64,000 bases of DNA from the NCBI GenBank assembly GCA_011525385.1, contig WTGF01000128.1:1-64000 (forward strand), in the 5' to 3' direction. This stretch comes from Chloroflexota bacterium (GTDB taxonomy: Bacteria; Chloroflexota; Anaerolineae; Aggregatilineales; Phototrophicaceae). The translations under genes were made by a program, and so were the position numbers. Below are positions 4,669 to 54,271 of the stretch, piece after piece (within the stretch, counting starts at the first letter, position 1; each line of letters begins with the position of its first letter). The notes beneath the pieces were generated by a model, which was given only the letters and a program-made list of their open reading frames with translations, was not told the origin of the DNA and made no database searches.

Positions 4669-4688
4669 ATTTCGTCCTCGATTTTCAG

Positions 4689-4709: not shown

Positions 4710-4768
4710 TGGCTTCCCGTTGTTGAGGTGGACCCATTGGGACGTCCGTAAGTGAAAAGGTAGCTTTG

Positions 4769-5008: not shown

Positions 5009-5128
5009 CGTATTACTGACGCCAACGAGGCACAGCTTTACAATCAAGGCAAGGCTAACGTAATTCAAAGCAGACTCATCTCGTGACGTTACATCCTCTA
5101 ATAGGTCAGTTGGCGAGCGACACATTGT

Positions 5129-7275: not shown

Positions 7276-7276
7276 C

Positions 7277-15048: not shown

Positions 15049-15050
15049 CC

Positions 15051-35226: not shown

Positions 35227-35489
35227 GCAGGGCAATCGCATCGAACTATTTTTCACCACAAAGGCACGAAGGACACAGAGTTTAGGGAATTGTGACGACT
35301 ATTCCTCTAAATTCATTGCCTGAATATGGCAAAGGCCGCCAGTAAGACTTCATCTGTCGCACGAAAGCACGCCAAAATAAGACAAGCGTATTCATTTCGT
35401 TGCTATTCTCGCTGTTCTCGATGCCCTCGGTGGTTAAATGTCCAATTTCGCCTCATGCCAGTCGCCATCGTTTGGAGCGATTGCCCTGC
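35227..35489. mobile_element. MITE-like foldback element, copy 2
   Basis: 13-bp perfect terminal inverted repeats GCAGGGCAATCGC / GCGATTGCCCTGC; collinear similarity to 3168-3420 across its length. Confidence 0.65.
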
Positions 35490-35508
35490 GGCAGGTGATG
35501 AGCGGACT

Positions 35509-35536
35509 TTGACATTTGATCGCCTTTCGCTATACT
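35509..35536 (+). promoter_or_regulatory. Promoter TTGACA-N16-TATACT of the DapA-sulfatase operon
   Basis: Near-consensus boxes, 47 bp upstream of the 35584 ATG. Confidence 0.6.
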
Positions 35537-35543
35537 CTTCTGC

Positions 35544-35557
35544 TGAAAACGTTTTCA
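35544..35557. promoter_or_regulatory. LacI operator TGAAAACGTTTTCA
   Basis: Perfect 14-bp palindrome overlapping the expected +1. Confidence 0.75.
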
Positions 35558-35583
35558 AAAGCAATCGCTTGCGGAGATTGGCG

Positions 35584-36507
35584 ATGCCCGATTATCAGGC
35601 GCCCGACGGCGCGTATCCTATTCTTCTGACCGCCTTTAACGAGAACGATGCGCTCGATTTGCCGGCCATCGGCAGCCTACTCGACTTTTATAAGAGCCTT
35701 GGCGTTCCCGGCGTGCTGGCCTTGGGTCAGGCCAGTGAGGTGCTTTATCTCGATGACGACGAACGGTTGCGGGTGGCGCAGCATGTGGCGGATCACCCCA
35801 GCGGCGGCATGACCATCGCCACTGTTGGCAACTTCGGCGCGACCCTGTCCCAGCAAGCGGCCAGCTTGCAGAGCATCTACGAAATGGGCAGCGATGTTGC
35901 GGTCGTGGCTCTGTCCCTGTTGCCCAGCGCACAAAACCTGGCCGACCAGTTGCTGGCGATCAGCTCCCTGGTCGGCGATCATGTCCGGCTGGGCATATAT
36001 GAATTGCCGCAGCCGGAGCACCGCCTGCTGACGCCGGCTGAAGTCGGGCGTGCCGCGGCGAGCGGTCGCTACTATTTCATGAAGGACACCTGTCGCGAAA
36101 TCGCCCCCTTCAGCGCCAAGCTGAGGGCCGCTGCCGGCAGCGCGCTCAAGCTCTTCCAGGCCAATCTCAAAGTGCTGCCGCCGTCTATGGAAGCCGGCAG
36201 CCACGGATTCTGCGGCTGGCTGCCTATGGTTTCTCCCGAGTTGAGCGCGCAAGTCTGCGATATGTCGCTGCCGGCCGAGATCCGCAAGGAAGCGCATGAC
36301 CGCTTGACGGCTTTCAACGAAGTCATGGTGGCGGGGGGCTTTCCCGCTTCGGCCAAGCATATCCTGGCGCGGCGCGGCGTCGCGATTCAGCCCTATAGCC
36401 GGGCCGAGTCGGCGCGGCGATTCTTCGAGGCGGGACCAGCAGCCCTGGATCAATACATCGCGGAGAACGAGCCCTTCACGGCGGTCGCGATGGCGGAGAC
36501 TCGATGA
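35584..36507 (+). CDS. DapA family aldolase
   Basis: PILLTAFNENDALDLPAIGSLLDFYKSLGVPGVLALGQASEVLYL; YYFMKDTC; start moved to the internal ATG downstream of promoter and operator. Confidence 0.87.
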   Translation: MPDYQAPDGAYPILLTAFNENDALDLPAIGSLLDFYKSLGVPGVLALGQASEVLYLDDDERLRVAQHVADHPSGGMTIATVGNFGATLSQQAASLQSIYEMGSDVAVVALSLLPSAQNLADQLLAISSLVGDHVRLGIYELPQPEHRLLTPAEVGRAAASGRYYFMKDTCREIAPFSAKLRAAAGSALKLFQANLKVLPPSMEAGSHGFCGWLPMVSPELSAQVCDMSLPAEIRKEAHDRLTAFNEVMVAGGFPASAKHILARRGVAIQPYSRAESARRFFEAGPAALDQYIAENEPFTAVAMAETR

Positions 36508-37871
36508 AGTCCAACATTATCGTCTTCTTCAGCGACGACCATGCCGCTTGGGCGCTGCCATCCTACGGCAACAGCGAGATCAGCGCGCCCCATATCAGCG
36601 AGTTGGCCGAAACCGGCGCCCTGATGGATAAGGCCTTCACGCCCTGTCCGGTCTGCTCGCCGGCGCGCGCCTCATTTTGGACTGGCCTGTATCCCTCGCA
36701 ACACGGCGTCCACGACCATCTGGCCGAGGACGATCCGGAGGTGGGGGCGACACCCTGGCTACACGGCATTCCGACGCTGGCCGATTACCTGCGCGCTGCC
36801 GGATACACCAGCGCCATGTGCGGCAAATGGCACTGCGGCGCGGGCGAAACCCCGAAATCCGGCTTCGATTACTGGTATAGTTCCTGGCGCAAGACCCCCA
36901 AGTACAGCACGATGACCCACAAATACAGCGATCAAGGTCAGGTGGTGGAGCGAACCGGTTACGATACGCGGATCGTCACCGACGCCGCCATCGACTTCCT
37001 GCGACAACGCGATGGAGAGAAACCTTTCTTTCTCTTCATCGGATACGCGACCACGCACAATCCCTGGATCAATCGCGACGAAGGACTGGTTTCGGGCTAT
37101 CGCAATGCGACATTCGGCGATATTCCTGACGATATTCCCTATGCCTTTGGCGAACCGGGCAGGCATCCCGTCGCGCCGGATGATCCCGGGGAGGCGCTGG
37201 CGCAATACTACGCTTCGGTAACGATGATCGATGAAGGGGTAGGGCGGGTGCTGGACGAACTGGCGGACGAACGTGATGAAACGCTGATCGTCTACACTTC
37301 CGATCACGGGCTGAACATGGGGCATCACGGCATCTGGGGCAAGGGCAACGGCAGCGAACCGCTGAACATGCTCGAGGAGTCCATTCGCGTGCCGCTGATC
37401 CTCAATCATGCCGGGCAGATCACGGCAGGCCAGAGGCGCGCCGAGCTAGTCAATCACTGCGACTTGTTCATGAGCTTGCTGGACTTCGCTGGCGCGCGGC
37501 CACAAGCGGCCGATCGCTTTCCCGGCAAGAGCTTCCGCCACATGCTGGCAGGGGAGGACGCGCCAGCATGGGACGACAAGACTATCGTCGAATACGGTGT
37601 CGTTCGCGCCATCCGCGACGCGCGCTACAAGCTGGTTCAACGCCGCGATAGTTACCAGAACCTCTTGCACGACCTCGAGCGCGATCCGCGGGAGACTGTG
37701 AACCTTTATCGTGATCCACAGTGCCAAGACATTGTCAGGCGCTTGACCGCCGCGCTGGAGAGCTTCTTCGCGAGATACGAAGTGGCGGCGCGCAGCGGCC
37801 TGCGCGGGGACGATCTGCCAGTCCATAACCGGAATGAAGCGTGGCGAAGCAAAAATGTCTCTTATTCATAA
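36504..37871 (+). CDS. Sulfatase (formylglycine-dependent type)
   Basis: CSPARASFWTGLYPSQHG (C-x-P-x-R), SDDHAAW, YTSDHGLNMGHHG. Confidence 0.95.
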   Translation: MKSNIIVFFSDDHAAWALPSYGNSEISAPHISELAETGALMDKAFTPCPVCSPARASFWTGLYPSQHGVHDHLAEDDPEVGATPWLHGIPTLADYLRAAGYTSAMCGKWHCGAGETPKSGFDYWYSSWRKTPKYSTMTHKYSDQGQVVERTGYDTRIVTDAAIDFLRQRDGEKPFFLFIGYATTHNPWINRDEGLVSGYRNATFGDIPDDIPYAFGEPGRHPVAPDDPGEALAQYYASVTMIDEGVGRVLDELADERDETLIVYTSDHGLNMGHHGIWGKGNGSEPLNMLEESIRVPLILNHAGQITAGQRRAELVNHCDLFMSLLDFAGARPQAADRFPGKSFRHMLAGEDAPAWDDKTIVEYGVVRAIRDARYKLVQRRDSYQNLLHDLERDPRETVNLYRDPQCQDIVRRLTAALESFFARYEVAARSGLRGDDLPVHNRNEAWRSKNVSYS

Positions 37872-37959: not shown

Positions 37960-39123
37960 ATGAAAATAACAGCGATTCGCGACCGCGTCGTGCCCATACG
38001 CTCGGATATCCGCAACGCCTTCATCGACTTTTCACAGATGACCGCTTCGATTGTCGGCATCCAGAGCGATGTCATCCGCGCCGGGGCGCCACTGATCGGC
38101 TATGGATTCAACTCCAACGGGCGCTACTCGCAGAGCGGCATCCTGCGCGATCGCATCATTCCCCGCCTGCTCGCGGCGCGGCCCGAGGCGCTGCTCAATG
38201 ATGACGGCAGCAACTTTGATCCCGCCCGGGCTTGGGACATCATGATGCGCAACGAAAAGCCGGGCGGCCATGGCGAGCGCTCGGTGGCGGTCGGCGTCAT
38301 CGATATGGCGCTCTGGGATCTGGTCGCCAAGATCGAAGGCGCCCCGCTTTATCGCTTGCTGGGCGAGCGCTATCGCGGCGGCGAGGTCGACGACGATGTC
38401 TTCGTCTATGCCGCCGGCGGCTACTATTATCCCGGCAAGGATCTGGGCGCGCTGCAAGACGAGATCAAGACTTATCTCGATTTGGGTTATAACACGGTCA
38501 AGATCAAGATCGGCGGCCTACCGCTGGCGGAGGACCTCAAACGCATCGAGGCGGTCATCGACATCGTCGGGGGCGGAAAGCGCCTGGCGGTCGATGTCAA
38601 CGGGCGCTTCAACCTGAAGGAGGCGCTGGCCTATGCCCAAGCCCTGGAACCATACAACCTGTTCTGGTACGAGGAGCCGGGCGATCCGCTCGACTACCTG
38701 CTCAATGCCGCGCTGGCGGGTTCGACCAGCTTGCCGCTGGCGACGGGCGAAAACCTTTTCTCGACCATCGACGCGGCCAACTTGATCCGCTACGGCGGCA
38801 TGAGGCCGGATAAGGATTTCCTGCAAATGGATCCCGCCCTCAGCTATGGCTTGGTGGAATACCTGCGCACACTGAACATGTTATCGGATTACGGCTGGTC
38901 CCCGCGGCGCTGCATCCCGCATGGCGGTCATCAATTCGCTTTGCATATCGCCGCCGGTCTGGGGCTTTTCGGCAACGAATCCTACCCCCATGTTTTTCAG
39001 CCTTTTGGCGGCTTCGGCGACGGTATCGCCGTGCGAAATGGGCGAATCCAGCCGCCCCAAGTACCCGGAATCGGCTTTGAACTTAAAGCCGATCTGATGA
39101 GAGAATTCGACGCGCTTTTCTAA
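37960..39123 (+). CDS. Enolase-superfamily sugar-acid dehydratase, D-tartrate-dehydratase-like
   Basis: TVKIKIGG, AVDVNGRFNLKEAL, YEEPGDPLDY, PHGGHQFALHIAAGLGLFGNESYPHVFQPFGGF. Confidence 0.88.
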   Translation: MKITAIRDRVVPIRSDIRNAFIDFSQMTASIVGIQSDVIRAGAPLIGYGFNSNGRYSQSGILRDRIIPRLLAARPEALLNDDGSNFDPARAWDIMMRNEKPGGHGERSVAVGVIDMALWDLVAKIEGAPLYRLLGERYRGGEVDDDVFVYAAGGYYYPGKDLGALQDEIKTYLDLGYNTVKIKIGGLPLAEDLKRIEAVIDIVGGGKRLAVDVNGRFNLKEALAYAQALEPYNLFWYEEPGDPLDYLLNAALAGSTSLPLATGENLFSTIDAANLIRYGGMRPDKDFLQMDPALSYGLVEYLRTLNMLSDYGWSPRRCIPHGGHQFALHIAAGLGLFGNESYPHVFQPFGGFGDGIAVRNGRIQPPQVPGIGFELKADLMREFDALF

Positions 39124-39922: not shown

Positions 39923-42900
39923 ATGGAACTGATTCCTCATATTGACATCATCGAGCCGGAGCGCATTGAGGCGCTCTTCGCGGACCAAGCCAACTACTGC
40001 TGGCGCGCGGTGGATTGCGAAACGCTGGATACCTGGTCCCCCGATATCGGCCTGACCGCCTATCCCAAGCCCAGCATTTATCGCGCCAACGTCCTCGCCG
40101 AATCCGAGCGGTCGTCGACATTGCGCCATCGCTTCTGGCAAACCATCGAGGGCCAAGCCGATCACACCGGTCGGCGCTACATCGGCATCCTGATCTATTG
40201 CAAGGCGGGTGAAACCTGCCCGATGGAGCTGCGCCTGGCCAGTCAAGAGATCGGGCGCGTGGAGCCGAGCCGACACGACAACCGCCCCCACTTGATTGTG
40301 GTCGACAAACCAGTCCAATTCATGGGCGCGATGGAGGTTTTTCGTTTGACCGCGCCGGGGCCCGGCAGCTATCGCATTGAAGGATTTGTCCTATTGCGCG
40401 AGCGGCCGCAGCCGAGCCGCTTCGCGCCGGAGATCGCGAATTTGACCCTTCGCGCGAGCCGCGCCGAGAACGGGAACTGGACGGCGCGGCTGCAGTTCAC
40501 CACCTCTCGGCTCGCGCGCGTTGACGCGACCATCGTCGAACATGGCTCCGCGTTTCGCGCCCGGCAGACGGCCGAGCCGGCGCGCCTGCATCATCTCCTT
40601 TTTTCCGATTTGCCCGCCGAGCGCAGCTTCGAGGCCGAAGTCACAGCGACTGACCCCTCCGGTGAATCGGTTACGGAAGCGCTGAGGTTTCTCACCTCGC
40701 AGACTGAGGGACGGCCGACGGAGAGAGTCGTAGTTCCGCTGGAACTGATCAATCTTAATAATTCCGATCTCGCTGGTCTGCCTCTGTCATTTGGCCTTCC
40801 CTTTAGCAAAGGCGCGCTTCCTCGGATCGCGACTTGCCACCTGCAGGCGGGAGGACAAGTCCTGCCGGCGGGGGCGCAAGCGCAAAGTCACTGGGACGAT
40901 GGCACGGTACGTTGGGCGCTGGTGGAAAGCCGCATTCCCCAAGACTTGACAAGTGAACGGTCGCTGTCGGGGGAGTTCCATGTCAACGCGCCCGACCTGA
41001 ATGCCGTCCCATTCGGCGGAACTGTTTCCGACGGGAACGACGATGTGCTGCGTTCGCAATCCTGCGATGGCGACCTTGTGATCGAGAGACGTCTGAATGA
41101 CAACTGGGACAAAGCTTTCTCCTTGTCGGACCTGCGCTTCCGGACGAATCTGAGCAACGGCGCGACGCTTCAATCGAGCCCGGTCCGCTGGCTGAGCCGC
41201 GATTCTCGTACTTTCCAGTTCGAGGTCAAGCACGAAGACGAACGCGGCGTCGCCCATTTACGCAGCAATATGCGCCTTCAGTTTTATCCGGACCAGAGTT
41301 TCGTCAAGCTGCATCACCGCCTGGAAGTCATCAGCCCGGCGCTGGCGCCCGCAGCCGCTGGCGGACAATTGCCCGGGGACAGCGACGAAGCGATCACTTC
41401 CGCTATCGTGGGCGACAGCGGCGAAGAAAGCACCCTGCTCAAGCTGCATTCCTTTTCCATTGGCATCCCATTCCCTGGCGCAGCGGTCGTTCACCACGCC
41501 GAGCAAAGTTGGAGCGCTACCGATGGCGACTGGCAACTGCGCCATGATCACGACCTGGCGTACAGCGCCGGCGGCGAAACCCGAGAAGGGAGGGCGCCCG
41601 GTCATATTCGAGTCGACGGTGATTTGGGCGCGCTTGGCATCGGCCTGCGCCATTTTTGGCAGACCTATCCCAAGGCGATTACGGTGGCTGGCGACGGGGT
41701 CGATATTGAACTCTTCCCCGAACGGAGCGGCGTCGACTTGCCCGGGGACGAAGACGCTCCCCACCGACTCTACTTCTGGCTCGCTGATGACGGCTATATC
41801 CTGAAATCCGGCCTGGCGCTGAGCAATGAAATCCTGCTCGATTTTGGCGGCGATCAGCCGGCCGCATTTGACTGGCTGGAACAGGGCGTCGTGGCGCGGC
41901 CGGATATCGGTTATCTCAATAGCACGGGCGCGCTTTATCGGCTCGGCGCGCGGCGGGATTCGATCTTGCCCGACTACGAGAAACTCGCCGACAGCGCCCT
42001 GGAGTCTTTTCACGACGATCGCGAGCATTTCCGCGCTTATGGACAAGTCAACTTCGGTGACTGGTACGGCGAGAGCGGCTGGTCCTGGGGCAATAACGAA
42101 TACGACCCGGCCTACTGCGCCTATAGCGAATTCCTGCGCGGCGGCGATCCAGGCTGGGCAGCCTGGGCCGCCGAGTCGGCGCGGCACCTGGCTGATGTCG
42201 ATACGATCAACTTCTCGGGCGATCCCGCAGAAATCGGCGGACAATCCATGCACATGCCCGGGCACCTGGGCGGATACTTGCCGCCGCTTTTCCGCAGCAA
42301 GATGGCGGGTACCAAGACAATCCCCTCGCATACCTGGATCGAGGGAACGATGCTGCATTATTTGTTGACGGGCGATGACTTTGTTTATGAATCGCTGCAG
42401 AAGACCAGAAACTGGCTTTTGCAGAAACATTTCTTCGACCATTATGATTTCACAAATGCGCGCGAAGCCGGCTGGCATTTGATCCATCTTTGCATGTTGG
42501 CCGCGGCGCAGGACGATCCCGACTGCCTGAATGCCGCCTCAATCATCGTCGAGCGGGTTTTGGAGCGCGCGGAGCCCGAAGGCGGCTGGGTGCGCAACTT
42601 GACCGAGAGTCATTGCGGCTGTGGCTATCCGCGCTGCAGCGGCGAGGCCGGTTTCATGGTCGGCGTTTTGCTCTCTGGCTTGAAGCGCTATTACAATCTC
42701 ACACAGGACCCGCGGGTCGGCGAGGCGATCATTGGCGGGGCGCGCTGGCTGATCCGCGAGACCTTCGATCACGAGAGCGGGCACTTCCGATATACCTCTT
42801 GCCGGAAGCGCACGCTCGGCGGCAACTTTCGCTGTACGCAGTGGGTTCTGGAAGGCTTGGCGGCCGCCTGGGAACTTTCGGGCGATACCGATATCGCCCT

Positions 42901-43054
42901 TCACGTGAAAAAGGGCCTGCCCACCATCGGCATGTTTCCCGAATGGATTTCTCATTTGGGCATGGGCAAGGCCATGTCACAGCAAATGCGCTATGTGCCG
43001 ACAATTTTGGCGACGCTGGAATCACGACCTCTGGGAGGAGAAAATGATGACTGA
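39923..43054 (+). CDS. Large multidomain protein with PcRGLX/YetA-like (exo-rhamnogalacturonan lyase-like) RIFT barrel and alpha/alpha-toroid region
   Basis: LSFGLPFSKGALPRIATCHLQAGGQVLPAGAQAQSHWDDGTVRWALVESRIP; SHTWIEGTMLHYLLTGDD; WLIRETFDHESGHFRYTSC. Confidence 0.6.
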   Translation: MELIPHIDIIEPERIEALFADQANYCWRAVDCETLDTWSPDIGLTAYPKPSIYRANVLAESERSSTLRHRFWQTIEGQADHTGRRYIGILIYCKAGETCPMELRLASQEIGRVEPSRHDNRPHLIVVDKPVQFMGAMEVFRLTAPGPGSYRIEGFVLLRERPQPSRFAPEIANLTLRASRAENGNWTARLQFTTSRLARVDATIVEHGSAFRARQTAEPARLHHLLFSDLPAERSFEAEVTATDPSGESVTEALRFLTSQTEGRPTERVVVPLELINLNNSDLAGLPLSFGLPFSKGALPRIATCHLQAGGQVLPAGAQAQSHWDDGTVRWALVESRIPQDLTSERSLSGEFHVNAPDLNAVPFGGTVSDGNDDVLRSQSCDGDLVIERRLNDNWDKAFSLSDLRFRTNLSNGATLQSSPVRWLSRDSRTFQFEVKHEDERGVAHLRSNMRLQFYPDQSFVKLHHRLEVISPALAPAAAGGQLPGDSDEAITSAIVGDSGEESTLLKLHSFSIGIPFPGAAVVHHAEQSWSATDGDWQLRHDHDLAYSAGGETREGRAPGHIRVDGDLGALGIGLRHFWQTYPKAITVAGDGVDIELFPERSGVDLPGDEDAPHRLYFWLADDGYILKSGLALSNEILLDFGGDQPAAFDWLEQGVVARPDIGYLNSTGALYRLGARRDSILPDYEKLADSALESFHDDREHFRAYGQVNFGDWYGESGWSWGNNEYDPAYCAYSEFLRGGDPGWAAWAAESARHLADVDTINFSGDPAEIGGQSMHMPGHLGGYLPPLFRSKMAGTKTIPSHTWIEGTMLHYLLTGDDFVYESLQKTRNWLLQKHFFDHYDFTNAREAGWHLIHLCMLAAAQDDPDCLNAASIIVERVLERAEPEGGWVRNLTESHCGCGYPRCSGEAGFMVGVLLSGLKRYYNLTQDPRVGEAIIGGARWLIRETFDHESGHFRYTSCRKRTLGGNFRCTQWVLEGLAAAWELSGDTDIALHVKKGLPTIGMFPEWISHLGMGKAMSQQMRYVPTILATLESRPLGGENDD

Positions 43055-43841
43055 TTGGACGACGCGCCTGGCGATCATCAGCGACGAAGCCGATGATTCC
43101 TTCCGCGACGCTGTTGAATTCTGCCTGCCGCTGGGTATACGAAACTATGAGATCCGCAAGCTGGGCGGCGGTCGCTTTCCGGACGTCAGTGACGAAGCGA
43201 TTCAAGAAGTGATCGATACCGTCGCCGAATACGACCTGAACCTGATCGGCGTCAGCCCCGGTTTTTTCAAGCACGACCTGGCTGAGGCGACAACCGAGCA
43301 AACCTTTCATGACGGCTTGCCGCGCGCTATCACCTTGATGCACAAGCTGGGGGCGACGCGCATGACGCTCTTCACTTTCAAGCGTGGCAGCGACCCTAAC
43401 GCGCCGATTCCCGGGCGGATTTACGACTACCTGGGACGCGCAATCGAGATTTGCCGCGGCGAAGGCATCGAAGTTCTGCTGGAAAATGCCGCCAGCATCT
43501 GGAGCAATACCGGCGCGAATCTGGCGCAGATCGCTGGTACGCTTGGCGCGCGTGTGGTGTGGGATCCAGCCAATGCCGCCGCTTCCGGAGAGCTGGCCTA
43601 TCCCGATGGCTATGCCGAGGTCCGCGATCTGATCGCCCATGTCCACTTCAAGAATTGGACCAAGGCGGACGGGTTCGTGGCGATCATGGACGGTGTGGCT
43701 GACTTGACCGGACAGGTAGCGGCGCTTAAATCCGACGGCTACAGCGGGCACTATTGCCTGGAGCCGCATCAATGGGGGGATCGTCATAATGCCGTGCGAG
43801 CGAACAGCGCGCAACTATTGCAACTCTTGGAAGGGGAATGA
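43044..43841 (+). CDS. Sugar phosphate isomerase/epimerase (xylose isomerase-like TIM barrel)
   Basis: IISDEADDSFRDAVEFCLPLGIRNYEIRKLGG; LIAHVHFKNWTK. Confidence 0.9.
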   Translation: MMTDWTTRLAIISDEADDSFRDAVEFCLPLGIRNYEIRKLGGGRFPDVSDEAIQEVIDTVAEYDLNLIGVSPGFFKHDLAEATTEQTFHDGLPRAITLMHKLGATRMTLFTFKRGSDPNAPIPGRIYDYLGRAIEICRGEGIEVLLENAASIWSNTGANLAQIAGTLGARVVWDPANAAASGELAYPDGYAEVRDLIAHVHFKNWTKADGFVAIMDGVADLTGQVAALKSDGYSGHYCLEPHQWGDRHNAVRANSAQLLQLLEGE

Positions 43842-44902
43842 GACAGATCATGCATTTCGACAAGATTCGCACGATGATCCTTGGCATGGGCGGCATCAGC
43901 CGAACCATGCTCCGCGCGCTGGAAAGCAAAGAATGGCATGAGTTGGTCGCCGTCGTCGATGTCAATGAAGACGCGCTGCAAAGGGCGGCGACAGATTATT
44001 CACTGCCGGCAGCGGCGCTTTTCACCGATCTGGGTTCGGCCTGCCGGGACTCGTCGGCAAATGTCGTCTTGATCAACACGCCATCCGAACTGCACTATGC
44101 GCAGACCAAAACCGCGCTGGAAGCCGGCTTGACGCCGCTGGTCGCCAAGCCGCTCGCGAATCGCTATGCGCAGTCCAGGGACTTGGCGAATCTCGCTTTC
44201 GAGAAGCGTATCAAGCTCTGTGTGGGCCAGCAAATGCGCTATCGCCGCCATTATCTCAGCGTGGCCGAATTCGTGGCGAGCGGCGCTCTGGGCAAGGTCG
44301 AGCAGATCTATTTTCTCAGCGCCAAACCGCGACATCAGGCGCGCAACTTGAAAGGCTTCCTGCAACCGGTGCTCTACGAGATGACCTGCCATCACCTTGA
44401 CACGCTCTTCGCTATCTTGCCGGACCTGGCGCCGGAAGCCGTCATTTGCGATGGCTTTGTGCCGTCCTGGTCTCCCTATGGTAGCGACTGCATGATCAAC
44501 GGACTGCTTCGCTTTCGCGGCGGTGTACATATGCTCTATCACGCCGGTTATTCAACGCAATCGAGCTGCTACGAGCTCCGCTTGGAAGGCACAAGGGGCG
44601 CCCTGCGCTGCCGCGGCATCCATATGTCGAACGATACGATGGAATATGAATTCGCCGAGCGCGGCGCGGCCTTCCGCCCGATCGATCTCGACCGGGGCAG
44701 GTCATCGTCCGATCCTTGGAGCCATTTCTTTGACCTCTGGTACGACTATCTCAATGGCGGGGAAGAGCCGCCCTTCAGCGGGCACAATAACCTGAAGATC
44801 TTGTCCGTCATCGACGCCGCGATAGAGTCCCTTGAACGAAAGGCCTTTGTCGAGATCCCGAACAGCCCGACTTGCCAATCTCTAGCTGAGAGCCTGTCAT
44901 GA
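43838..44902 (+). CDS. Gfo/Idh/MocA family oxidoreductase
   Basis: TMILGMGGISRTMLRAL; GLTPLVAKPLANRYAQSRDL. Confidence 0.9.
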   Translation: MRQIMHFDKIRTMILGMGGISRTMLRALESKEWHELVAVVDVNEDALQRAATDYSLPAAALFTDLGSACRDSSANVVLINTPSELHYAQTKTALEAGLTPLVAKPLANRYAQSRDLANLAFEKRIKLCVGQQMRYRRHYLSVAEFVASGALGKVEQIYFLSAKPRHQARNLKGFLQPVLYEMTCHHLDTLFAILPDLAPEAVICDGFVPSWSPYGSDCMINGLLRFRGGVHMLYHAGYSTQSSCYELRLEGTRGALRCRGIHMSNDTMEYEFAERGAAFRPIDLDRGRSSSDPWSHFFDLWYDYLNGGEEPPFSGHNNLKILSVIDAAIESLERKAFVEIPNSPTCQSLAESLS

Positions 44903-45876
44903 TCATAGATTGCCAGAGCCACGTTTTCCCCCGTGCCTATGCTGAGTTGCTCACGCGCAATACCAATACCCTGCGCACAACCCGCGTCGACGATGGCGTC
45001 TACCTGATCAATTACGGCGATGTGCAGCGCTTCCGCCTCGACCTCGATAGCTACAGCGCCGAGCGCAAACTGCGCGACATGGATGCCTCCGGCGTTGATA
45101 TGAGCGTGATCAGCGTCAATATCCCTACCCCCGATATGCTGGACCCCGATCTGGCAAGTGAAGGCGCGCGCATCTGCAACGATGCCTTGGCCGAGCTTTG
45201 CGCGAGGCATCCCGACCGCTTTGTTGGCCTCGCCAGCCTGCCCCTCAATGATGTGCCGGCTGCGATTGCCGAACTGGACCGCGCCATCGACGAGCTTGAT
45301 CTGCGCGGCGTATTTTTACCCTCGCACGTCAAGGGCGCGCCGCTTGACGCGCCGCAATTCGAAGCCTTTTACGCGCATGTCGCCGGGCGGGGCGTTCCGC
45401 TGGTTTTGCACCCGGCCGTGCCGGTCTGGGGTGAAGCGGTCAACGAACACAGCATGATCCCGATGATGGGTTTTATGGTCGATACGTCTTTTGCCATGCT
45501 GCGGCTGATACTGGGCGGCGTCATGGAGAGACGTCCGACATTAAAAGTCCTGCATCCGCATGTCGGTGGGGTATTGCCCTATCTGATGGGACGTGTGGTC
45601 GAGCAGACCGAAGTCAAAGGGCGCGGAGGCGATCACATCTCGCAGTCGCCGCGCGAAACCTACAAGCGCGTCTACCTTGATCTCGTTTCGCCTGATCCGC
45701 TGGCGATCCGCTACGCTTACGACTTCGCCGGCGCTGATCGGCTGCTCTTCGGCAGCGATCATCCCTGGGTCAGCATCGACGCCATTCTTGATATCGTTCG
45801 GGGGCTGGATATTCCCGCAGGTGACAAAGACATGTTGCTCGAAAGCAATGCGCGGGAATTGTTTCGCATTGATTGA
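44899..45876 (+). CDS. Amidohydrolase family protein (ACMSD-like)
   Basis: MIIDCQSHVFP; PLVLHPAVPVWGE; LLFGSDHPW. Confidence 0.88.
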   Translation: MIIDCQSHVFPRAYAELLTRNTNTLRTTRVDDGVYLINYGDVQRFRLDLDSYSAERKLRDMDASGVDMSVISVNIPTPDMLDPDLASEGARICNDALAELCARHPDRFVGLASLPLNDVPAAIAELDRAIDELDLRGVFLPSHVKGAPLDAPQFEAFYAHVAGRGVPLVLHPAVPVWGEAVNEHSMIPMMGFMVDTSFAMLRLILGGVMERRPTLKVLHPHVGGVLPYLMGRVVEQTEVKGRGGDHISQSPRETYKRVYLDLVSPDPLAIRYAYDFAGADRLLFGSDHPWVSIDAILDIVRGLDIPAGDKDMLLESNARELFRID

Positions 45877-46353: not shown

Positions 46354-47658
46354 ATGAAACTTTTTGATTATGCTGACTTTGTTGAAGGCTGGGACCTCAC
46401 GATAAACCGCTATGCAACCCAAAAGGTCGAATTCGGCGCGCAAGGCGTCGCGGAAAAAGTGGCGGAGATTGAAGCGCTGCTCCAGCAGAAGATAGCGGAG
46501 CTGGATGCGCTGCCCAACGACCCCGAGCTGGAAAAGGCGGAACCCGACGATCTGGCATCCATCCTGGCCTTGCGCCCGGACGGCAGCCGCCGCATGCTGT
46601 CGTCGCTGCCCGACGACTTTCGCGATCGCCTGGAAGGGGCTTGGCTGGCTCGCTGCGCCGGCTGCACGCTCGGCTCCATCGTCGAAGGCTGGAAAGTGGA
46701 GCGGATGGAGCGCTGGGCCGCCTACCTTGGCGACCAGTTCCCGCTGGTGGATTATTGGAGCCAGGCGGAACAGCCGCATCTGCCCCGTTTGAAGATGAGC
46801 GTACGCCACGATTACACGCCCTCGAAGATGAATGGCGTCCCCTCCGATGACGACCTCAACTACACGCTGCTCGGCCTGCTGGTCCTGGAAGAATACGGCC
46901 CCGACTTCACCGTCGACGACATGGGCGAAGCCTGGGTCAAATACCTGCCCTTCGCCTTCACCGCCGAGGGCATCGCGCTGGAAAATCTGCGGGCGGGCGT
47001 GCCGGCCATGCAAGCGGGCGCGCTCAATAATCCCTGCCTCAACTGGATCGGCGCCGATATTCGCTCCGACCCCTGGGGCTACGCCGCGCCCGGCTGGCCG
47101 GAAAAAGCGGCGGAATTCGCCTGGCGCGACGCCACCATCAGCCACCGGCGCAACGGCGTCTACGCCGCTATGTATTTCTCGGCGGCGATTTCGGCAGCCT
47201 TCGCCGTGGACGATCCGATGGACGCGCTGAAAATCGCGCTGGAAGAGATTCCAGCGGACAGCATTACCGCGCGTGAAATACGCTGGGCGCTCGACAAAGC
47301 GCCTTCCATTACGGGGTACAAAGATGCCGCCGCTCTCTGTGAAGAGCGCTACCCTGGTTTGTGGAAGTCGCATTCCTTCCAAAATAACGCCTTGACGATC
47401 TGGGGCTTGGCTGTAGGTGGCGATGACTACACCAAAGTCATCGGCGAGACGGTCGCCATGGGCCAAGACAACGACTGCACCGCCGCCACAGCCGGCAGTA
47501 TCTTCGGCGCTGTCTACGGGGCGAGCGCCATCCCCGAACACTGGACCCGCAATTTCAACAACAAGATTCATTGCTACCTGAACGGGCATCCGACATTCGC
47601 GCTTGACGACGTGGTTGATCGCTTCGTCGCGCAGGCGGAGAGGGTCATGGCGGGCTAA
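46354..47658 (+). CDS. ADP-ribosylglycohydrolase family protein, tandem copy 1
   Basis: DRLEGAWLARCAGCTLGS, PSDDDLNYT, GADIRSDPWGYAAPG, GQDNDCTAATAGSIFGA. Confidence 0.88.
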   Translation: MKLFDYADFVEGWDLTINRYATQKVEFGAQGVAEKVAEIEALLQQKIAELDALPNDPELEKAEPDDLASILALRPDGSRRMLSSLPDDFRDRLEGAWLARCAGCTLGSIVEGWKVERMERWAAYLGDQFPLVDYWSQAEQPHLPRLKMSVRHDYTPSKMNGVPSDDDLNYTLLGLLVLEEYGPDFTVDDMGEAWVKYLPFAFTAEGIALENLRAGVPAMQAGALNNPCLNWIGADIRSDPWGYAAPGWPEKAAEFAWRDATISHRRNGVYAAMYFSAAISAAFAVDDPMDALKIALEEIPADSITAREIRWALDKAPSITGYKDAAALCEERYPGLWKSHSFQNNALTIWGLAVGGDDYTKVIGETVAMGQDNDCTAATAGSIFGAVYGASAIPEHWTRNFNNKIHCYLNGHPTFALDDVVDRFVAQAERVMAG

Positions 47659-47670
47659 TGAGAATTTATG

Positions 47671-47735
47671 GGGCGACCAACCTGGTCGCCCTTGTGGCAG
47701 TAGGTTGCGTTTTCGGGCGACCTGATAGGTCGCCC
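47671..47735. repeat. Two GGGCGACC hairpins between ARH copies 1 and 2
   Basis: GGGCGACCA-ACC-TGGTCGCCC and GGGCGACCT-GAT-AGGTCGCCC. Confidence 0.8.
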
Positions 47736-47794
47736 CTACAACTATCCTCGATATTTCCGCATTCGGTAATGAAAAATCTAGACAGGAGAGAACC

Positions 47795-49102
47795 ATGCGA
47801 CTATTTGACTACCCGGACAAAGTGGCGGCCTGGGAACGGGTGATTAACGCTTACGCGCAGCAGAAGGTCGAATTCGGCGCCAGCGGCGTGGCGGAAAAGG
47901 TGGCGGAGATCGAAGCGCTGCTCAAGCAGAAGGTGGCGGAGTTGGACGCCTTGGCCAACGATGCTGAATTGGCAAAAGCGGAACCCGATGATCTGGAGAC
48001 GATCCGCAGCCTGCGCCCGGACGGCAGCCGCCGGATGTGGACGAGCCTTTCGGAGGATTTCCGTGAGCGCCTGGAAGGATCCTGGCTGGGGCGCTGCGCC
48101 GGCTGCACGCTCGGCTCGATCGTCGAGGGCTGGACCGTCGAGCGGATGGAAGAATGGGCGCAATACCTCGGCGATGAATATCCGCTGGTGGATTACTGGA
48201 GCGTCGCCGAACAACCCCATAATCGCAAGTATCAGACCAGCCTGCGCGAAGACTTCACGCCCGCAAAGATGGATGGCGTGCCCACGGATGACGACCTCAA
48301 TTACACGCTGCTCGGTTTGATGATCCTGGAGGAATACGGGCTCGATTTCACTACTGATGACCTGGGCGAAGCCTGGATCAAGTACCTGCCCTTCGCCTTC
48401 ACCGCCGAAGGCATCGCGCTTGCCAACTTGCGGGCGGGCATCCCCCCCATGCAAGCTGCTGAAGTCGACAATTGCTTTCTGAACTGGATCGGCGCTGACA
48501 TTCGCTCGGATCCCTGGGGTTATGCCGCGCCCGGCTGGCCGCAGAAAGCGGCGGAATTCGCCTATCGCGATGCCTACGTCAGCCATCGGCGCAACGGCAT
48601 CTATGCCGCCATGTTTTTCTCGGCGGCGATTTCGGCCGCCTTCGCCGTAAATGATCCGGTCGAGGCGCTGCAAATCGGCTTGGAGGAGATACCCGCCGAC
48701 TGTCTTCTGGCGCGGGAAGTGCGCTGGGCGCTGGAGGTAGCGCCATCGATCGCGAACTATCGCGATGCCGCCGCCGCCATTGAGGAGCGTTATCCACAAA
48801 TGGGCGGGGCGCACGCAATCAACAACACCGTTCTCACCGTTTGGGGTTTGACCGTCGGCGGTGACGACTACACCAAGGTCATTGGCGAAACCGTCGCCAT
48901 GGGCAAGGACAACGACTGCACCGCCGCCACCGCCGGCAGCATCTGGGGCGCCGTCTATGGCAAGAGCGCCATCCCCAAGCACTGGTACAAGAACTTCAAC
49001 AACAAAGTGCATACCTTCTTGTATCACCAATCGACCTTTGCCATCGACGATGTCATCGATCGCTTCGTCGTCCAGGCGGAGAAAGTCATGGCGGGGAATT
49101 AG
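47795..49102 (+). CDS. ADP-ribosylglycohydrolase family protein, tandem copy 2
   Basis: Same core motifs as copy 1; own SD AGGAGAG. Confidence 0.88.
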   Translation: MRLFDYPDKVAAWERVINAYAQQKVEFGASGVAEKVAEIEALLKQKVAELDALANDAELAKAEPDDLETIRSLRPDGSRRMWTSLSEDFRERLEGSWLGRCAGCTLGSIVEGWTVERMEEWAQYLGDEYPLVDYWSVAEQPHNRKYQTSLREDFTPAKMDGVPTDDDLNYTLLGLMILEEYGLDFTTDDLGEAWIKYLPFAFTAEGIALANLRAGIPPMQAAEVDNCFLNWIGADIRSDPWGYAAPGWPQKAAEFAYRDAYVSHRRNGIYAAMFFSAAISAAFAVNDPVEALQIGLEEIPADCLLAREVRWALEVAPSIANYRDAAAAIEERYPQMGGAHAINNTVLTVWGLTVGGDDYTKVIGETVAMGKDNDCTAATAGSIWGAVYGKSAIPKHWYKNFNNKVHTFLYHQSTFAIDDVIDRFVVQAEKVMAGN

Positions 49103-49145
49103 GGTTGGAGGATTCGATTCCTTCCCAGGGTAGATTTTGGATTGC

Positions 49146-49166
49146 GGGCGACCTGATAGGTCGCCC
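49146..49166. repeat. GGGCGACCT-GAT-AGGTCGCCC hairpin between ARH copies 2 and 3
   Basis: Perfect inverted repeat identical to the one at 47715-47735. Confidence 0.85.
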
Positions 49167-49229
49167 CTGCAGCTATTTCTGATTTTGTGATTTAGCGGGA
49201 CAAAGCTGAAATCGTTTTAGGAGGAGCGC

Positions 49230-50540
49230 ATGACCAATTATAACTACCCCGAGCCATTGGAAGACATCGACAGGTCAATCAACCACTGGGCACAGCTCAA
49301 GGCGGAAACCGGCGCCGACGGCCTGGCGGATAAAATGGCGGAAATCAAATCCGTGATCGCGGAGAAGCTGGCCGAGTTGCGCGCCCTGCCCGAAGACCCC
49401 GCCCTGCGCGCGGCGGAACCGGATGACCTGAACGCCATTCGCGCGCTGCGTCCGGATGGCGCCCGCCGTTACTGGTCGGCGCTGCCGGAGGAGACCTTCC
49501 GCGATCGGCTGGAAGGGGCGATTATGGGGCGATTCGCTGGCTGTGTATTGGGGTCGATCGTCGAATGCTGGGAGATCGAAAAGATGGAGCGCTGGGCGGC
49601 TTATCTCGGCGATGCCTTCCCGCCCGATGACTATTGGAGCGAGGCGGAACGCCCGAACGATCTCAAGTATCAGACCAGCCCCCGCGAGACCTTCACGCGG
49701 TCAAAAATGGACGGCGTGCCCACCGATGACGACATCATCTACACCCAGTTGGGTATGCTCATCCTGGAGGATTACGGACCCGATTTTAGTGTGGACGACG
49801 TAGGCGCTGCCTGGGTGAAATATTTGCCGCACGCGGCTACCGCGGAAGGCGTTGCCCTGAGGAATCTGCATGCGGGACTACCGCCTGCGCAAGCGGCTGT
49901 CGTGGACAATCCCTTCATGTTTTGGATCGGCGCTGATATTCGCTCGGATCCCTGGGGCTATGCCGCCCCCGGCTATCCCGAAAAAGCCGCCGAGTTCGCC
50001 TGGCGCGATGCCACCATCAGTCACCGGCGCAACGGCATCTACGGCGCCATGTACTTCTCCGCCGTCATTTCGGCCGCTTTCGCTTTGGCCGATCCGCTGA
50101 AAGCGCTGGAAGCCGGCCTGGCGGAGATTCCAGCCGATTGCCTGTTGGCGCGCGAGCTACGCTGGGCGCTGGACAAAGCGGACGACATCAAGCACTTCCG
50201 CGAGGCGCGCGAAACCGTCGACAGACGTTACGCCGGCATGCACAGAATACATACCATCAACAACGCTGTGCTGACTGTTTGGGGGCTGAAAGTCGGTGGC
50301 GATGATTACAGTAAAGTGATCGGCGAAACGGTGGCGATGGGCTTGGACAACGACTGTACCGCCGCCACCGCCGGCAGCATCTTTGGCGCGGCTTATGGGG
50401 CAGACGCCATCCCCGAGCATTGGACCAGAAACTTCAACAACAAGGTCTACTCGTACATCATCGGCGTGGAGAAATTCGCTCTCAATGATATGGTTGAGCG
50501 CTTCGCCGCGCTGGCGGGGAAGGTCCTGGCAGCGGAATAG
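49230..50540 (+). CDS. ADP-ribosylglycohydrolase family protein, tandem copy 3
   Basis: PTDDDIIYT, GADIRSDPWGYAAPGYPEKAAEFAWRDATISHRRNGIYGAMYF, GLDNDCTAATAGSIFGAAYG. Confidence 0.88.
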   Translation: MTNYNYPEPLEDIDRSINHWAQLKAETGADGLADKMAEIKSVIAEKLAELRALPEDPALRAAEPDDLNAIRALRPDGARRYWSALPEETFRDRLEGAIMGRFAGCVLGSIVECWEIEKMERWAAYLGDAFPPDDYWSEAERPNDLKYQTSPRETFTRSKMDGVPTDDDIIYTQLGMLILEDYGPDFSVDDVGAAWVKYLPHAATAEGVALRNLHAGLPPAQAAVVDNPFMFWIGADIRSDPWGYAAPGYPEKAAEFAWRDATISHRRNGIYGAMYFSAVISAAFALADPLKALEAGLAEIPADCLLARELRWALDKADDIKHFREARETVDRRYAGMHRIHTINNAVLTVWGLKVGGDDYSKVIGETVAMGLDNDCTAATAGSIFGAAYGADAIPEHWTRNFNNKVYSYIIGVEKFALNDMVERFAALAGKVLAAE

Positions 50541-50589
50541 ACTGGAAGCTTCCGATACGCTTTTGCGCTTGTCTGGGAGTGGTGATATG

Positions 50590-50651
50590 CGAGGACCAAG
50601 TCCTCGGTTGTACCGGGAATGTAGGAGCGACTATCAGGTCGTCCGCCTTAC
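50590..50651. repeat. Degenerate hairpins between ARH copies 3 and 4
   Basis: CGAGGAC-CAA-GTCCTCG and GTAGGAGCGACTATCAGGTCGTCCGCCTTAC. Confidence 0.6.
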
Positions 50652-50676
50652 CGAGTAAAATGTTGAGGAGACGTCC

Positions 50677-51981
50677 ATGACAGCTTACAATTACCCCGAC
50701 CCCTTGGAAGGCCTGAGCCGGAATATCAACCTCTGGGCGCAGCTCAAGACCGAAACCGGCGCCCCCGGTGTGAAAGAAAAGCTGGCTGAAATCAATGCCA
50801 TCATCGCGGAGAAGCTGGCCGAGTTGCGCGCCCTGCCCGAAGACCCCGCCCTGCGCGCGGCGGAACCGGATGACCTGGACGCCATTCGCGCGCTGCGTCC
50901 GGATGGCGCCCGCCGTTTCTGGTCGACGCTTCCGGAGGCGACCTACCGCGACCGGCTCGAAGGCGCTTGGCTGGGCCGCTGTGCCGGCTGCACGCTCGGC
51001 TCGATCGTTGAACTTTGGGAACCCGACAAAATGGAGAGCTGGGCGGCTTACCTCGGCGATGCCTTCCCGCCCGTCGATTACTGGAGCGAGGCGGAACGGC
51101 CCTTTGAACTCAAGTATGAGACGAGCTTGCGCGAGGCCTTCACGCCCTCAAAGATGGACGGCGTGCCCACCGATGACGACCTGATCTACACGCAACTGGG
51201 CCTGCTGATCCTGGAAGATTACGGGCCCGACTTCACGGTAGACGATGTCGGCGCTGCCTGGGTCAAGTACTTGCCTGTCTCGCCAGCGTCGCCCGTGCTC
51301 GGTAATCTGCAAGCCGGCGTAGCGCCGCTGAAGGCGGCTGAAGTTGACAATCCCACCATGTTCTGGATCATCGGCGATATCCGCTCCGACGCCTGGGGCT
51401 ATGCCGCGCCCGGTTATCCCGAGAAAGCGGCCGAATTCGCCTGGCGCGACGCCACCGTTTCCAGCCGCCGCAACGGCATCTACGGCGCCATGTACTTCTC
51501 CGCCGTCATCGCTGCCGCCTTCGCACTGGGCGATCCCATGGCTGCGCTGGAAGCCGGCTTGAGCGAAATCCCGGCTGACTGCGTGCTGGCGCGGGAAGTG
51601 CGCTGGGCATTGGACGCGGCGGGCGACATCAAAGATTATCGCGCGGCGCGCGCCGCCGCCGACGAGCGTTACGCCGGTATGCACCTGGTGCACACCATCA
51701 ACAACGTGGCGCTGACCATTTGGGGGCTGAGCATCGGCGGCGACGACTTCTCCAAGGTCATCGGCGAGACGGTAGCCATGGGCATGGACAACGACTGCAC
51801 CGCCGCCAGCGCCGGCAGCATCTTCGGCGCCGCTTACGGAAAAGGCGCTATCCCCGGGCATTGGACACGCCATTTTAACAACAAGGCGCATTCCTTCATC
51901 ATCGGCACAGAGTCATTCGCCATTGACGATATGGTCAATCGCTTCACCGCGCTGGCGGGGAAGGTGCTGGCGGGGGAATAG
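50677..51981 (+). CDS. ADP-ribosylglycohydrolase family protein, tandem copy 4
   Basis: PTDDDLIYT, GDIRSDAWGYAAPGYPEKAAEFAWRDATVSSRRNGIYGAMYF, GMDNDCTAASAGSIFGAAYG. Confidence 0.88.
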   Translation: MTAYNYPDPLEGLSRNINLWAQLKTETGAPGVKEKLAEINAIIAEKLAELRALPEDPALRAAEPDDLDAIRALRPDGARRFWSTLPEATYRDRLEGAWLGRCAGCTLGSIVELWEPDKMESWAAYLGDAFPPVDYWSEAERPFELKYETSLREAFTPSKMDGVPTDDDLIYTQLGLLILEDYGPDFTVDDVGAAWVKYLPVSPASPVLGNLQAGVAPLKAAEVDNPTMFWIIGDIRSDAWGYAAPGYPEKAAEFAWRDATVSSRRNGIYGAMYFSAVIAAAFALGDPMAALEAGLSEIPADCVLAREVRWALDAAGDIKDYRAARAAADERYAGMHLVHTINNVALTIWGLSIGGDDFSKVIGETVAMGMDNDCTAASAGSIFGAAYGKGAIPGHWTRHFNNKAHSFIIGTESFAIDDMVNRFTALAGKVLAGE

Positions 51982-52837: not shown

Positions 52838-54271
52838 ATGCCACCTTCGAATTTTCCTTTGCTGGCGCTGGATGCGCGCAACTTCTCGACCATCGAGCAT
52901 GCCGACCTGCAATTGGGCTCGGTCGAGAAGAGCGAGCGCAATCCGCTTTTCCGCGAAGACTTCTTCGCGGATCCGCCCAAGCGCTGGGAAGCGCGCTTCG
53001 ACAATGTCTATCCCAGCGTCATTTATGACGAGGGAGAAGGCCTTTTCAAGTGTTGGTACAAGTCCTTCATCGTCGATGAAGCATCGGTCGCGACGCCTCT
53101 GACGCGGCGACCGCAGACGCGCTACACCGGCGGTAAACGTGAAGAAGGCCTGCTCTACGCGACCTCGAACGACGGTATCCATTGGAAAAAACCGGCGCTG
53201 GGCTTGATCGAATTTGGCGGCTCGCGCGCCAACAACATCGTCATGCGCCGCGCCACACATGGCATCCACGCCGGCGGCGTACTCAAAGACCCGCGCGATC
53301 CCGATCCCGCCCGTCGCTACAAGTTCATCCACCGCAATCCGCGGGCGGGGCGCATGGCGACCTGTTTTTCCGCCGATGGGCTGCGCTGGTCCCAGCCCCG
53401 GCTCTGGCCCGAACACGATGCTGTCGGCGATACGCACAACAACGCCATCTGGTCGCCGGCGCTTGACAAGTATGTCTGCATCACACGCGGGTGGTCGGGC
53501 GGACCCTATCAGGGACTCCGCACCGTCCTGCGCGGCGAAAGCGCGGACTTCCTGCATTGGACCGAGCCGGTTGAGGTCATGCGCGGCGGCGACGCTCACG
53601 ATCAGATCTATTCCATGCCCATCTTTCAATACGCCGGCCTATACATCGGCTTGCCGGCGATATTCCACAAGGGCGACGAAAAGGCGACCGATTGGGATAC
53701 GGTTGATACCGAACTGGCCTGGAGCGCCGACTCGGTCAACTGGCGGCGCATCTGTCCGGGCGAAGCCTTTATTCCGCGCGGAGGGGGCAGTTATCCCGAC
53801 GGCGAATACGACTGCGGCTGCATTTACGCCGCCGCTCCCATCGTACGCGGCGAAAGGGTTTTGATCTATTACGGCGGCAGCAACGGCTTGCATAATAACT
53901 GGCGCGAAAGTTCGCTTAACCTGGCGACGCTGGATATCGACCGTTTCGCCGGTCTCGCGCCTCGCGAGCAGCGGCAAACGGCGCTCGTGATGACTACGCC
54001 GTTGCGGCTGGACGCGGACATGATCACCGTCAACGCCAGGATCGCGGCCGGCGGGGGTATCCGCGCCGCGCTGCTTGACGCCGCTGGCTCGAGCTTGCCC
54101 GGCTGCACGCTTGAGGATTGCTTGCCTCTGAAAAAGAGCGGCATATCCTGCCAGCTTCAATGGAAGGGCCAGCCACAAGCTTGCCAGCCAGGGCAGACCC
54201 GGCAACTGCTATTCGCTTTGGACAATGCCACGCTCTATGCCATCAAGGGCGCAAGCCGTCTTTCCGATTGA
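52838..54271 (+). CDS. GH32/GH43-like five-bladed beta-propeller hydrolase-like protein
   Basis: VYPSVIYDEGEGLFKCWYKSF, LLYATSNDGIHWKKPALGLIEF, CFSADGLRWSQP. Confidence 0.7.
   Translation: MPPSNFPLLALDARNFSTIEHADLQLGSVEKSERNPLFREDFFADPPKRWEARFDNVYPSVIYDEGEGLFKCWYKSFIVDEASVATPLTRRPQTRYTGGKREEGLLYATSNDGIHWKKPALGLIEFGGSRANNIVMRRATHGIHAGGVLKDPRDPDPARRYKFIHRNPRAGRMATCFSADGLRWSQPRLWPEHDAVGDTHNNAIWSPALDKYVCITRGWSGGPYQGLRTVLRGESADFLHWTEPVEVMRGGDAHDQIYSMPIFQYAGLYIGLPAIFHKGDEKATDWDTVDTELAWSADSVNWRRICPGEAFIPRGGGSYPDGEYDCGCIYAAAPIVRGERVLIYYGGSNGLHNNWRESSLNLATLDIDRFAGLAPREQRQTALVMTTPLRLDADMITVNARIAAGGGIRAALLDAAGSSLPGCTLEDCLPLKKSGISCQLQWKGQPQACQPGQTRQLLFALDNATLYAIKGASRLSD

What the first reader, a model, noticed from the sequence alone, without database searches (positions are those of the whole stretch)
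46354..51981. Tandem quadruplication of ~435-aa ADP-ribosylglycohydrolases
Seen: four consecutive same-strand paralogues, each with its own SD. All share an N-terminal ~80-aa extension (AEKVAEIEALL.QK.AELDAL...EPDDL) before the ARH core, plus motifs DRLEG(A/S), (P/T)(S/T)DDD, G.DIRSD.WGYAAPG, and G.DND(C)TAA(T/S)AGS. Copies 1/2 and 3/4 form two sequence pairs, implying stepwise duplication. Knowledge: PF03747 hydrolases reverse ADP-ribosylation or cleave ADP-ribose and N-riboside bonds. Inference: the array may be diversified for several related substrates, or may counter ADP-ribosylating toxins. A run of four is unusual for this family.
Basis: partly seen in the sequence, partly recalled or inferred. 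Interest (0 to 1): 0.78.

Follow-up and report, generated by a model that had tools for sequence, protein, structure and literature searches.

The report
Conserved four-copy ARH-fold enzyme array
A group of sponge-associated Chloroflexota carries, beside sugar-breakdown genes, four anciently duplicated enzymes of the ADP-ribosylglycohydrolase fold, kept distinct across many species, the fourth with its metal site intact but its substrate pocket rebuilt; they probably cut sugar bonds from host or algal glycans rather than undoing ADP-ribosylation.

Summary
Four intact 434-436-aa genes at 46354-51981, each with its own Shine-Dalgarno, match PF03747 over the whole profile and fold like DraG/ARH3. 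It is not an assembly artefact: 30 of 34 species of the genus carry the gene, 10 have all four copies on one contig, and the order 1-2-3-4 is never violated. A tree gives four orthologue groups, pairs 1+2 and 3+4, so the array is ancient; every copy is under purifying selection (median dN/dS 0.10-0.17). The toxin idea is unsupported: no ART partner nearby, no defence or immunity match, and a variant metal motif (E...[S/T]DDD...DNDC). The array ends a glycan-type operon (sulfatase, enolase-superfamily dehydratase, PL26-like protein, oxidoreductase, amidohydrolase), and single-copy homologues elsewhere in Chloroflexota sit beside glycosidases and sugar kinases. New here: copy 4 keeps every metal ligand but has lost 12 of 83 family-invariant positions, mostly in three segments that bind the substrate in ARH1/ARH3. 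Most likely these are diversified, metal-dependent glycoside hydrolases of sugar catabolism, copy 4 re-specialised. The substrate is untested. Whether single-copy species never duplicated or lost copies is unresolved (p-AU 0.079).

The parts
46354..47658 (+). ARH copy 1 (group 1), 434 aa
   Evidence: PF03747 E 1.6e-46; orthologue group of 21 sequences
47795..49102 (+). ARH copy 2 (group 2), 435 aa; model pLDDT 91.8
   Evidence: PF03747 E 9.9e-47; model and fold search
49230..50540 (+). ARH copy 3 (group 3), 436 aa; has lost only 1 of 83 family-invariant positions
   Evidence: PF03747 E 1e-44
50677..51981 (+). ARH copy 4 (group 4), 434 aa; metal ligands kept, substrate-contact segments changed
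   Evidence: PF03747 E 1.9e-34; model pLDDT 86.5
51277..51297 (+). Copy 4 segment VSPASPV, in place of FAFTAEGIA, two residues shorter; TAE is invariant in all other members of the subfamily examined
   Evidence: TAE lost and 2-aa deletion in 18/18 group-4 proteins
51370..51372 (+). Copy 4 Ile in place of the family-invariant Gly (G233 of copy 2)
   Evidence: I15 C1 V1 of 18 (one other); G in all of groups S,1,2,3
51463..51465 (+). Copy 4 Ser in place of the family-invariant His (H264 of copy 2), aligned with the DraG ITH His
   Evidence: S13 N3 C2 of 18
52838..54271 (+). Conserved downstream gene, 477 aa, no Pfam, NCBIfam or PDB match; has YATS.DGIHW-type motifs; present in 20/20 genomes with copies 3 or 4
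44899..45876 (+). Amidohydro_2 (ACMSD/LigW-like) operon gene
   Evidence: synteny
43838..44902 (+). Gfo/Idh/MocA oxidoreductase
42993..43841 (+). Xylose-isomerase-like TIM barrel protein
39923..43054 (+). PcRGLX (PL26)-like protein, 1043 aa
39155..39919 (+). Weak glycosyltransferase-8-like protein
   Evidence: 22.6 bits, below the 24.3 cut-off
37960..39123 (+). Enolase-superfamily dehydratase close to Bll6730 (PDB 2dw6/1tzz)
36504..37871 (+). S1-type sulfatase
35326..36507 (+). DHDPS-family aldolase-like protein
34120..35151 (-). LacI-family regulator, divergent

Best explanation
The array is a genus-specific, ancient tandem expansion of a PF03747 subfamily that works in carbohydrate catabolism. 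Each copy is predicted to be a cytoplasmic, dinuclear-metal (Mg2+/Mn2+) hydrolase. As in ARH1/ARH3, the metal pair would chelate vicinal hydroxyls of a sugar, and a flap glutamate (E111) would help cleave the glycosidic bond. Here the substrate would be a glycan-derived glycoside released by the operon's sulfatase and lyase-type proteins, not an ADP-ribosylated protein. Copies 1-3 keep the ancestral pocket with group-specific edges. Copy 4 keeps all metal ligands but lost the helix-start TAE segment, the Gly and the His that in ARH1/ARH3 contact the distal ribose and diphosphate, so it should act on a differently shaped or uncharged substrate. Shown: fold, motifs, orthologue groups, purifying selection, synteny. 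Inferred: metal binding, hydrolysis, substrate class, division of labour.
For: Fold: model pLDDT 91.8, Foldseek top hits DraG, MJ1187, ARH3 at E about 1e-7 with TM 0.71-0.78 by target length; copy 4 also folds as ARH. Metal positions E111, D165, D166, D372, D374, C375 are identical in all five groups. Four monophyletic groups, bootstrap/SH-aLRT 100/100, 100/98, 89/73, 100/96; pairs 1+2 98/96 and 3+4 99/98; order 1-2-3-4 always kept. Median dN/dS 0.12, 0.10, 0.15, 0.17, maximum 0.25. Copy 4 lost 12 of 83 family-invariant positions, against 5, 6 and 1 for copies 1-3; most of the 12 lie at 203-205, 233-237 and 256-264. In hARH1 the corresponding contacts are the first turn of helix alpha8 and the conserved Gly130 and His163 (PMC6309922); helix 203-213 of copy 2 shrinks to 207-212 in copy 4. 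Context: operon sulfatase, MR_MLE, RGLX, TIM, GFO, Amido2, ARH conserved in many genus members, including single-copy species; single-copy homologues outside the genus lie beside GH1, GH35, glucoamylase-like, GH16, GH106, GlcNAc 2-epimerase, or PfkB plus TIM barrel genes.
Against: No member of this subfamily with a solved structure or known activity was found, so the substrate is inferred from neighbours alone. The array also occurs without the RGLX operon in about ten genus members, so the link to that one pathway is not strict. His and Gly of the diphosphate site are kept in copies 1-3, which leaves room for a nucleotide-sugar or ADP-ribose-like ligand. MAG data carry no expression evidence. 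The clustering of copy-4 losses was noticed after the fact.
Confidence: 0.52

Rival explanations
1. Copy 4 (and perhaps the array as a whole) has become a non-catalytic or regulatory subunit: it binds metal for stability and forms hetero-oligomers with copies 1-3 through the N-terminal helices, rather than having its own substrate.
For: Loss of invariant substrate-contact residues with fold and metals kept. Fixed order and linked presence of copies 3/4. ARH-fold proteins occur as parts of larger assemblies, e.g. ARHL in the Ycf2-FtsHi motor (8xks/8xqw).
Against: All metal ligands and the catalytic Glu are kept in 18/18 copy-4 proteins, which a pure scaffold would not need. On present assemblies some genomes carry copy 2 alone or copies 1-2 alone.
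Confidence: 0.2
2. The proteins act on ADP-ribose, nucleoside or N-riboside metabolites (salvage), with copies tuned to different leaving groups.
For: Canonical ARH chemistry; another PF03747 gene in the same window (12684-13691) adjoins a PfkB kinase and lies near a nucleoside hydrolase and a PnrA-like transporter. Two distant homologues of the array lie beside PfkB kinases. The diphosphate-site Gly and His are kept in copies 1-3.
Against: That salvage-type gene is a different subfamily (20-25% identity). The array's own neighbours are sulfatase and lyase-type genes, not nucleoside genes.
Confidence: 0.15
3. ADP-ribosylation erasers or immunity proteins that counter ADP-ribosylating toxins.
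For: Membership of PF03747, which includes DraG, ARH1, ARH3 and the Tri1-type immunity proteins; fold hits to the two ART toxin-immunity pairs.
Against: No ART among the window genes scanned near the array, no PADLOC match, NCBIfam DraG and Tri1 scores far under cut-off, variant metal motif, operon-type synteny kept over the genus. The DRAT search found nothing but its control did not ring, so it is uninformative.
Confidence: 0.08
4. Gene dosage: near-redundant copies kept for high expression.
For: Tandem, same strand, each with a strong SD.
Against: Paralogues in one genome are only 58-77% identical while orthologues reach 97%, there is no concerted evolution, and each group has fixed residues.
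Confidence: 0.05

Closest known systems
DraG, ARH1 and ARH3 (ADP-ribosyl)hydrolases, PF03747
   Same: Fold (TM 0.59-0.78 by target length); flap Glu, [S/T]DD and DxD metal motifs; conserved Gly and His in copies 1-3
   Different: About 12-19% identity; N-terminal ~88-aa helical extension; [S/T]DDD and DNDC in place of [S/T]DDT and D[S/T]D[S/T]; GC in place of GD in the first motif; copy 4 lacks the Gly, His and TAE; sugar-catabolic context
Tri1-type and Lmo0067 ARH immunity proteins (6dre, 8za7)
   Same: Fold
   Different: No adjacent ART toxin; NCBIfam Tri1 score 27-30 bits against a cut-off of 490
Uncharacterised single-copy PF03747 proteins with the DTDC/DNDC motif in other Chloroflexota
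   Same: N-terminal extension, EPSDL, TAE, IGA.IR.D, SH...(N)GIYGE and GxD[TN]DC..AT motifs
   Different: Single copy, no tandem array
ARHL in the Ycf2-FtsHi motor (8xks, 8xqw)
   Same: Fold, larger ARH-like chain
   Different: Eukaryotic organelle assembly component; 13-16% identity only

Membership tests
PF03747 ADP_ribosyl_GH | Score above the curated cut-off over the full profile | tested here: met
   120-160 bits against 26.2, positions 1-287 (copy 4: 1-286)
PF03747 ADP_ribosyl_GH | ARH all-alpha fold | tested here: met
   Models pLDDT 91.8 and 86.5; DraG/ARH3 top hits
ARH1/ARH3 class of (ADP-ribosyl)hydrolases | Metal motif E...SDDT...DSDS or E...[T/S]DDT...DTDT (PMC6309922) | tested here: not met
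   All groups read E...[S/T]DDD...DNDC: the acidic ligands are kept, the fourth residues are not
ARH1/ARH3 class of (ADP-ribosyl)hydrolases | Absolutely conserved Gly and His that contact the diphosphate | tested here: inconclusive
   Met at the aligned positions in copies 1-3 (G233, H264), not met in copy 4; equivalence to hARH1 Gly130/His163 rests on profile alignment to DraG and on motif context
ARH1/ARH3/DraG | Hydrolysis of ADP-ribosyl substrates | not testable with these tools
   Needs biochemistry
DraG equivalog | NCBIfam TIGR02662 cut-off 337 bits | tested here: not met
   28-38 bits
Tri1 immunity hydrolase | NCBIfam NF041672 cut-off 490 bits; adjacent ART toxin | tested here: not met
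   27-30 bits; no ART among the scanned neighbours
Anti-phage defence protein | Match to a PADLOC model | tested here: not met
   No match
Glycan-catabolic operon member | Conserved linkage with carbohydrate-active genes over several species | tested here: met

The most novel reading that the evidence does not exclude
The ARH fold has been turned into a family of metal-dependent glycoside hydrolases of glycan catabolism, outside present ADP-ribosylation biology. In this sponge-associated genus it was amplified into four specialised enzymes, one of which (copy 4) evolved a new substrate pocket around an unchanged dinuclear metal site.
Probability: 0.35. Interest if true: 0.72.

Novelty: new variant of a known kind. 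Interest (0 to 1): 0.52.

Why it matters
PF03747 genes are routinely annotated as ADP-ribosylation erasers. Here a subfamily spread over many Chloroflexota families sits in sugar-catabolic surroundings with a variant metal motif, so that annotation is probably misleading for a sizeable set of genes. The array gives a natural experiment: four paralogues, a single-copy relative and a pocket-altered copy with intact metals make it directly testable whether the ARH chemistry was moved to other glycosides.

Tried and rejected
(1) Assembly artefact: rejected; ten genomes hold all four copies on one contig, and orthologues across species match copy by copy. (2) Recent amplification or concerted evolution: rejected. 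(3) Copy 4 as pseudogene: rejected; intact in 18 copies from 17 genomes, maximum dN/dS 0.25. (4) Never-duplicated state of the single-copy species: the first tree with a very distant outgroup suggested it, but nearer outgroups put the single-copy genes with copies 1+2 at 100/99, implying loss of the 3/4 lineage or long-branch attraction; the AU test does not settle it (p 0.079). (5) Defence system: no PADLOC match. (6) DRAT search in the genome: uninformative because the control did not ring. (7) The downstream 477-aa gene: no match in Pfam, NCBIfam or PDB even as a profile. (8) Literature: no paper on this array or on ARH proteins in glycan operons found in the library searched. (9) Rfam and tRNA scans of the window: empty.
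Full report
OBSERVATION. The four ORFs exist at the stated coordinates on the + strand. Each matches PF03747 over essentially the whole profile, has its own AGGAG-type Shine-Dalgarno, and the spacers between copies are 127-136 bp. Identities are 74% (1/2), 77% (3/4) and 63-64% (cross-pairs). The genome (4.9 Mb, 131 contigs, 94% complete) has ten PF03747 matches, four of them this array. In 60 other Chloroflexota genomes there were 0-4 matches each and no same-strand run, so a run of four is unusual in this phylum.

DISTRIBUTION. Records found by protein similarity are MAGs titled Chloroflexi, Chloroflexota or Anaerolineae. Prefixes such as RHO and COS fit the sponge MAG set of PMC8163846; the link of prefix to host is my inference. 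Of 34 genomes of the genus, 30 carry array-type proteins; G014, G015, G031 and G033 do not. Ten genomes hold 1-2-3-4 on one contig, and no contig violates the order. Six genomes have a single gene (group S). Outside the genus the best homologues (about 630 to 200 bits) were nearly all single copies (one genome, G698, has two far apart), found in 23 of the class-level genomes (33 hits less own and nine congeners, 396 searched) and 19 of the phylum-level genomes (20 hits less own, 400 searched; the two samples share two hits) at E <= 1e-58.

HISTORY. All four copies form orthologue groups: 1 (21 sequences), 2 (23), 3 (19), 4 (18), each monophyletic, with pairs 1+2 (98/96) and 3+4 (99/98). So the array predates most of the sampled species, and copies have not been homogenised. 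With nearer outgroups group S joins 1+2 (100/99); holding 1-4 together costs 20.5 log units with p-AU 0.079. Whether single-copy species lost the 3/4 lineage or never had it is therefore open, and the faster evolution of 3/4 makes long-branch attraction a real concern. Purifying selection acts on all groups: median dN/dS 0.071 (S), 0.120, 0.099, 0.149, 0.172. G020 keeps copies 1-2 and a broken 80-aa remnant with a stop just downstream, a loss in progress.

ACTIVE SITE. The copy-2 model (pLDDT 91.8) matches DraG, MJ1187 and ARH3 structures; copy 4 (86.5) does as well. Flap Glu E111, D165, D166, D167, D372, D374 and C375 (copy 2 numbers) are identical in all five groups, and T164 is S in group 1. 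Against the published ARH motifs E...[T/S]DDT...D[T/S]D[T/S] (PMC6309922) the fourth residues differ (D and C), and the first motif reads GC in place of GD. The same DxDC form is found in the single-copy homologues, so it is a subfamily trait. Of 83 positions invariant (at most one exception) in 14 distant homologues plus six single-copy genes, groups 1-4 have lost 5, 6, 1 and 12. Group-4 losses concentrate at TAE 203-205 (with a two-residue deletion in 18/18), G233-A234-R237, and A256-D259-H264. By profile alignment to DraG the H264 position falls on the DraG ITH histidine and TAE on the loop before the ribose helix. In hARH1 the matching contacts to the ligand are the first turn of helix alpha8, Gly130 and His163. 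In the models, helix 203-213 of copy 2 shrinks to 207-212 in copy 4. Copy 4 thus keeps the metal site and has a rebuilt ligand site. The segments were singled out after seeing the data, so the clustering should be read as strong description, not a planned test.

CONTEXT. Upstream on the same strand: DHDPS-family aldolase, sulfatase, enolase-superfamily dehydratase, a weak GT8-like protein, a 1043-aa PL26-like protein, TIM-barrel isomerase, Gfo/Idh/MocA oxidoreductase, ACMSD/LigW-like amidohydrolase, with a divergent LacI regulator and an oligopeptide-type ABC transporter. The dehydratase is very close to Bll6730 (540 bits), which I know from the literature as D-tartrate dehydratase. This order recurs in genus members, including single-copy species. 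In other members the array lies near an enolase-superfamily gene and a BNR-repeat gene, without the RGLX operon. Homologues outside the genus lie beside GH1, GH35/42, a glucoamylase-like gene, GH16, a GlcNAc 2-epimerase-like protein, GH106, or PfkB plus a TIM barrel. The 477-aa gene after copy 4 is present in all 20 genomes with copies 3 or 4 and in 4 of 10 others; species are related, so this is suggestive only. Published work reports a massively expanded carbohydrate-degradation repertoire and many arylsulfatases in sponge Anaerolineae and Caldilineae (PMC6306507), which fits.

INTERPRETATION. Shown: an old, ordered, selected array of four ARH-fold proteins with one pocket-altered member in sugar-catabolic surroundings. 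Inferred: dinuclear-metal hydrolysis of glycosides, with specialised copies. The ADP-ribosylation or toxin reading has no support beyond family membership. The annotation 'ADP-ribosylglycohydrolase' is correct for the fold and untested for the activity.

Noticed in passing
window 20946, 46011, 47671, 47715, 49146, 63245: REP-like palindrome GGGCGACC-N5-GGTCGCCC: 6 in the window against 0.09 expected, and 160 exact core copies in the genome against 3 for the reversed control; three lie in the spacers between array copies 1/2 and 2/3.
   Followed up: partly
window 12684-15995: A different, canonical-looking PF03747 gene followed by a PfkB kinase and an inosine-uridine nucleoside hydrolase, downstream of a PnrA-like/ABC nucleoside-type transporter (3520-11902): a likely nucleoside salvage cluster.
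   Followed up: partly
window 5129-6172: An N6/N4 DNA methylase gene lies between the PnrA-like binding protein and its ABC genes, in a stretch of lower GC (about 0.51-0.53 against about 0.59): possible insertion.
   Followed up: no
L002/L006 (G000:C74:52093-54117): A 1118-aa open frame with two PF03747 domains in one protein.
   Followed up: no
L078 (G020:C152:41004-41243): Broken 80-aa remnant of an array copy, with a stop codon, just after copies 1-2: gene loss in progress.
   Followed up: no
L084 (G028:C124:228-3063): Two adjacent group-4 genes in one species: a further local duplication of the pocket-altered copy, one of them fast-evolving.
   Followed up: no
window 52838-54271: Conserved 477-aa protein with YATS.DGIHW-type motifs and no family or structure match even as a profile; present whenever copies 3 or 4 are present.
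   Followed up: partly
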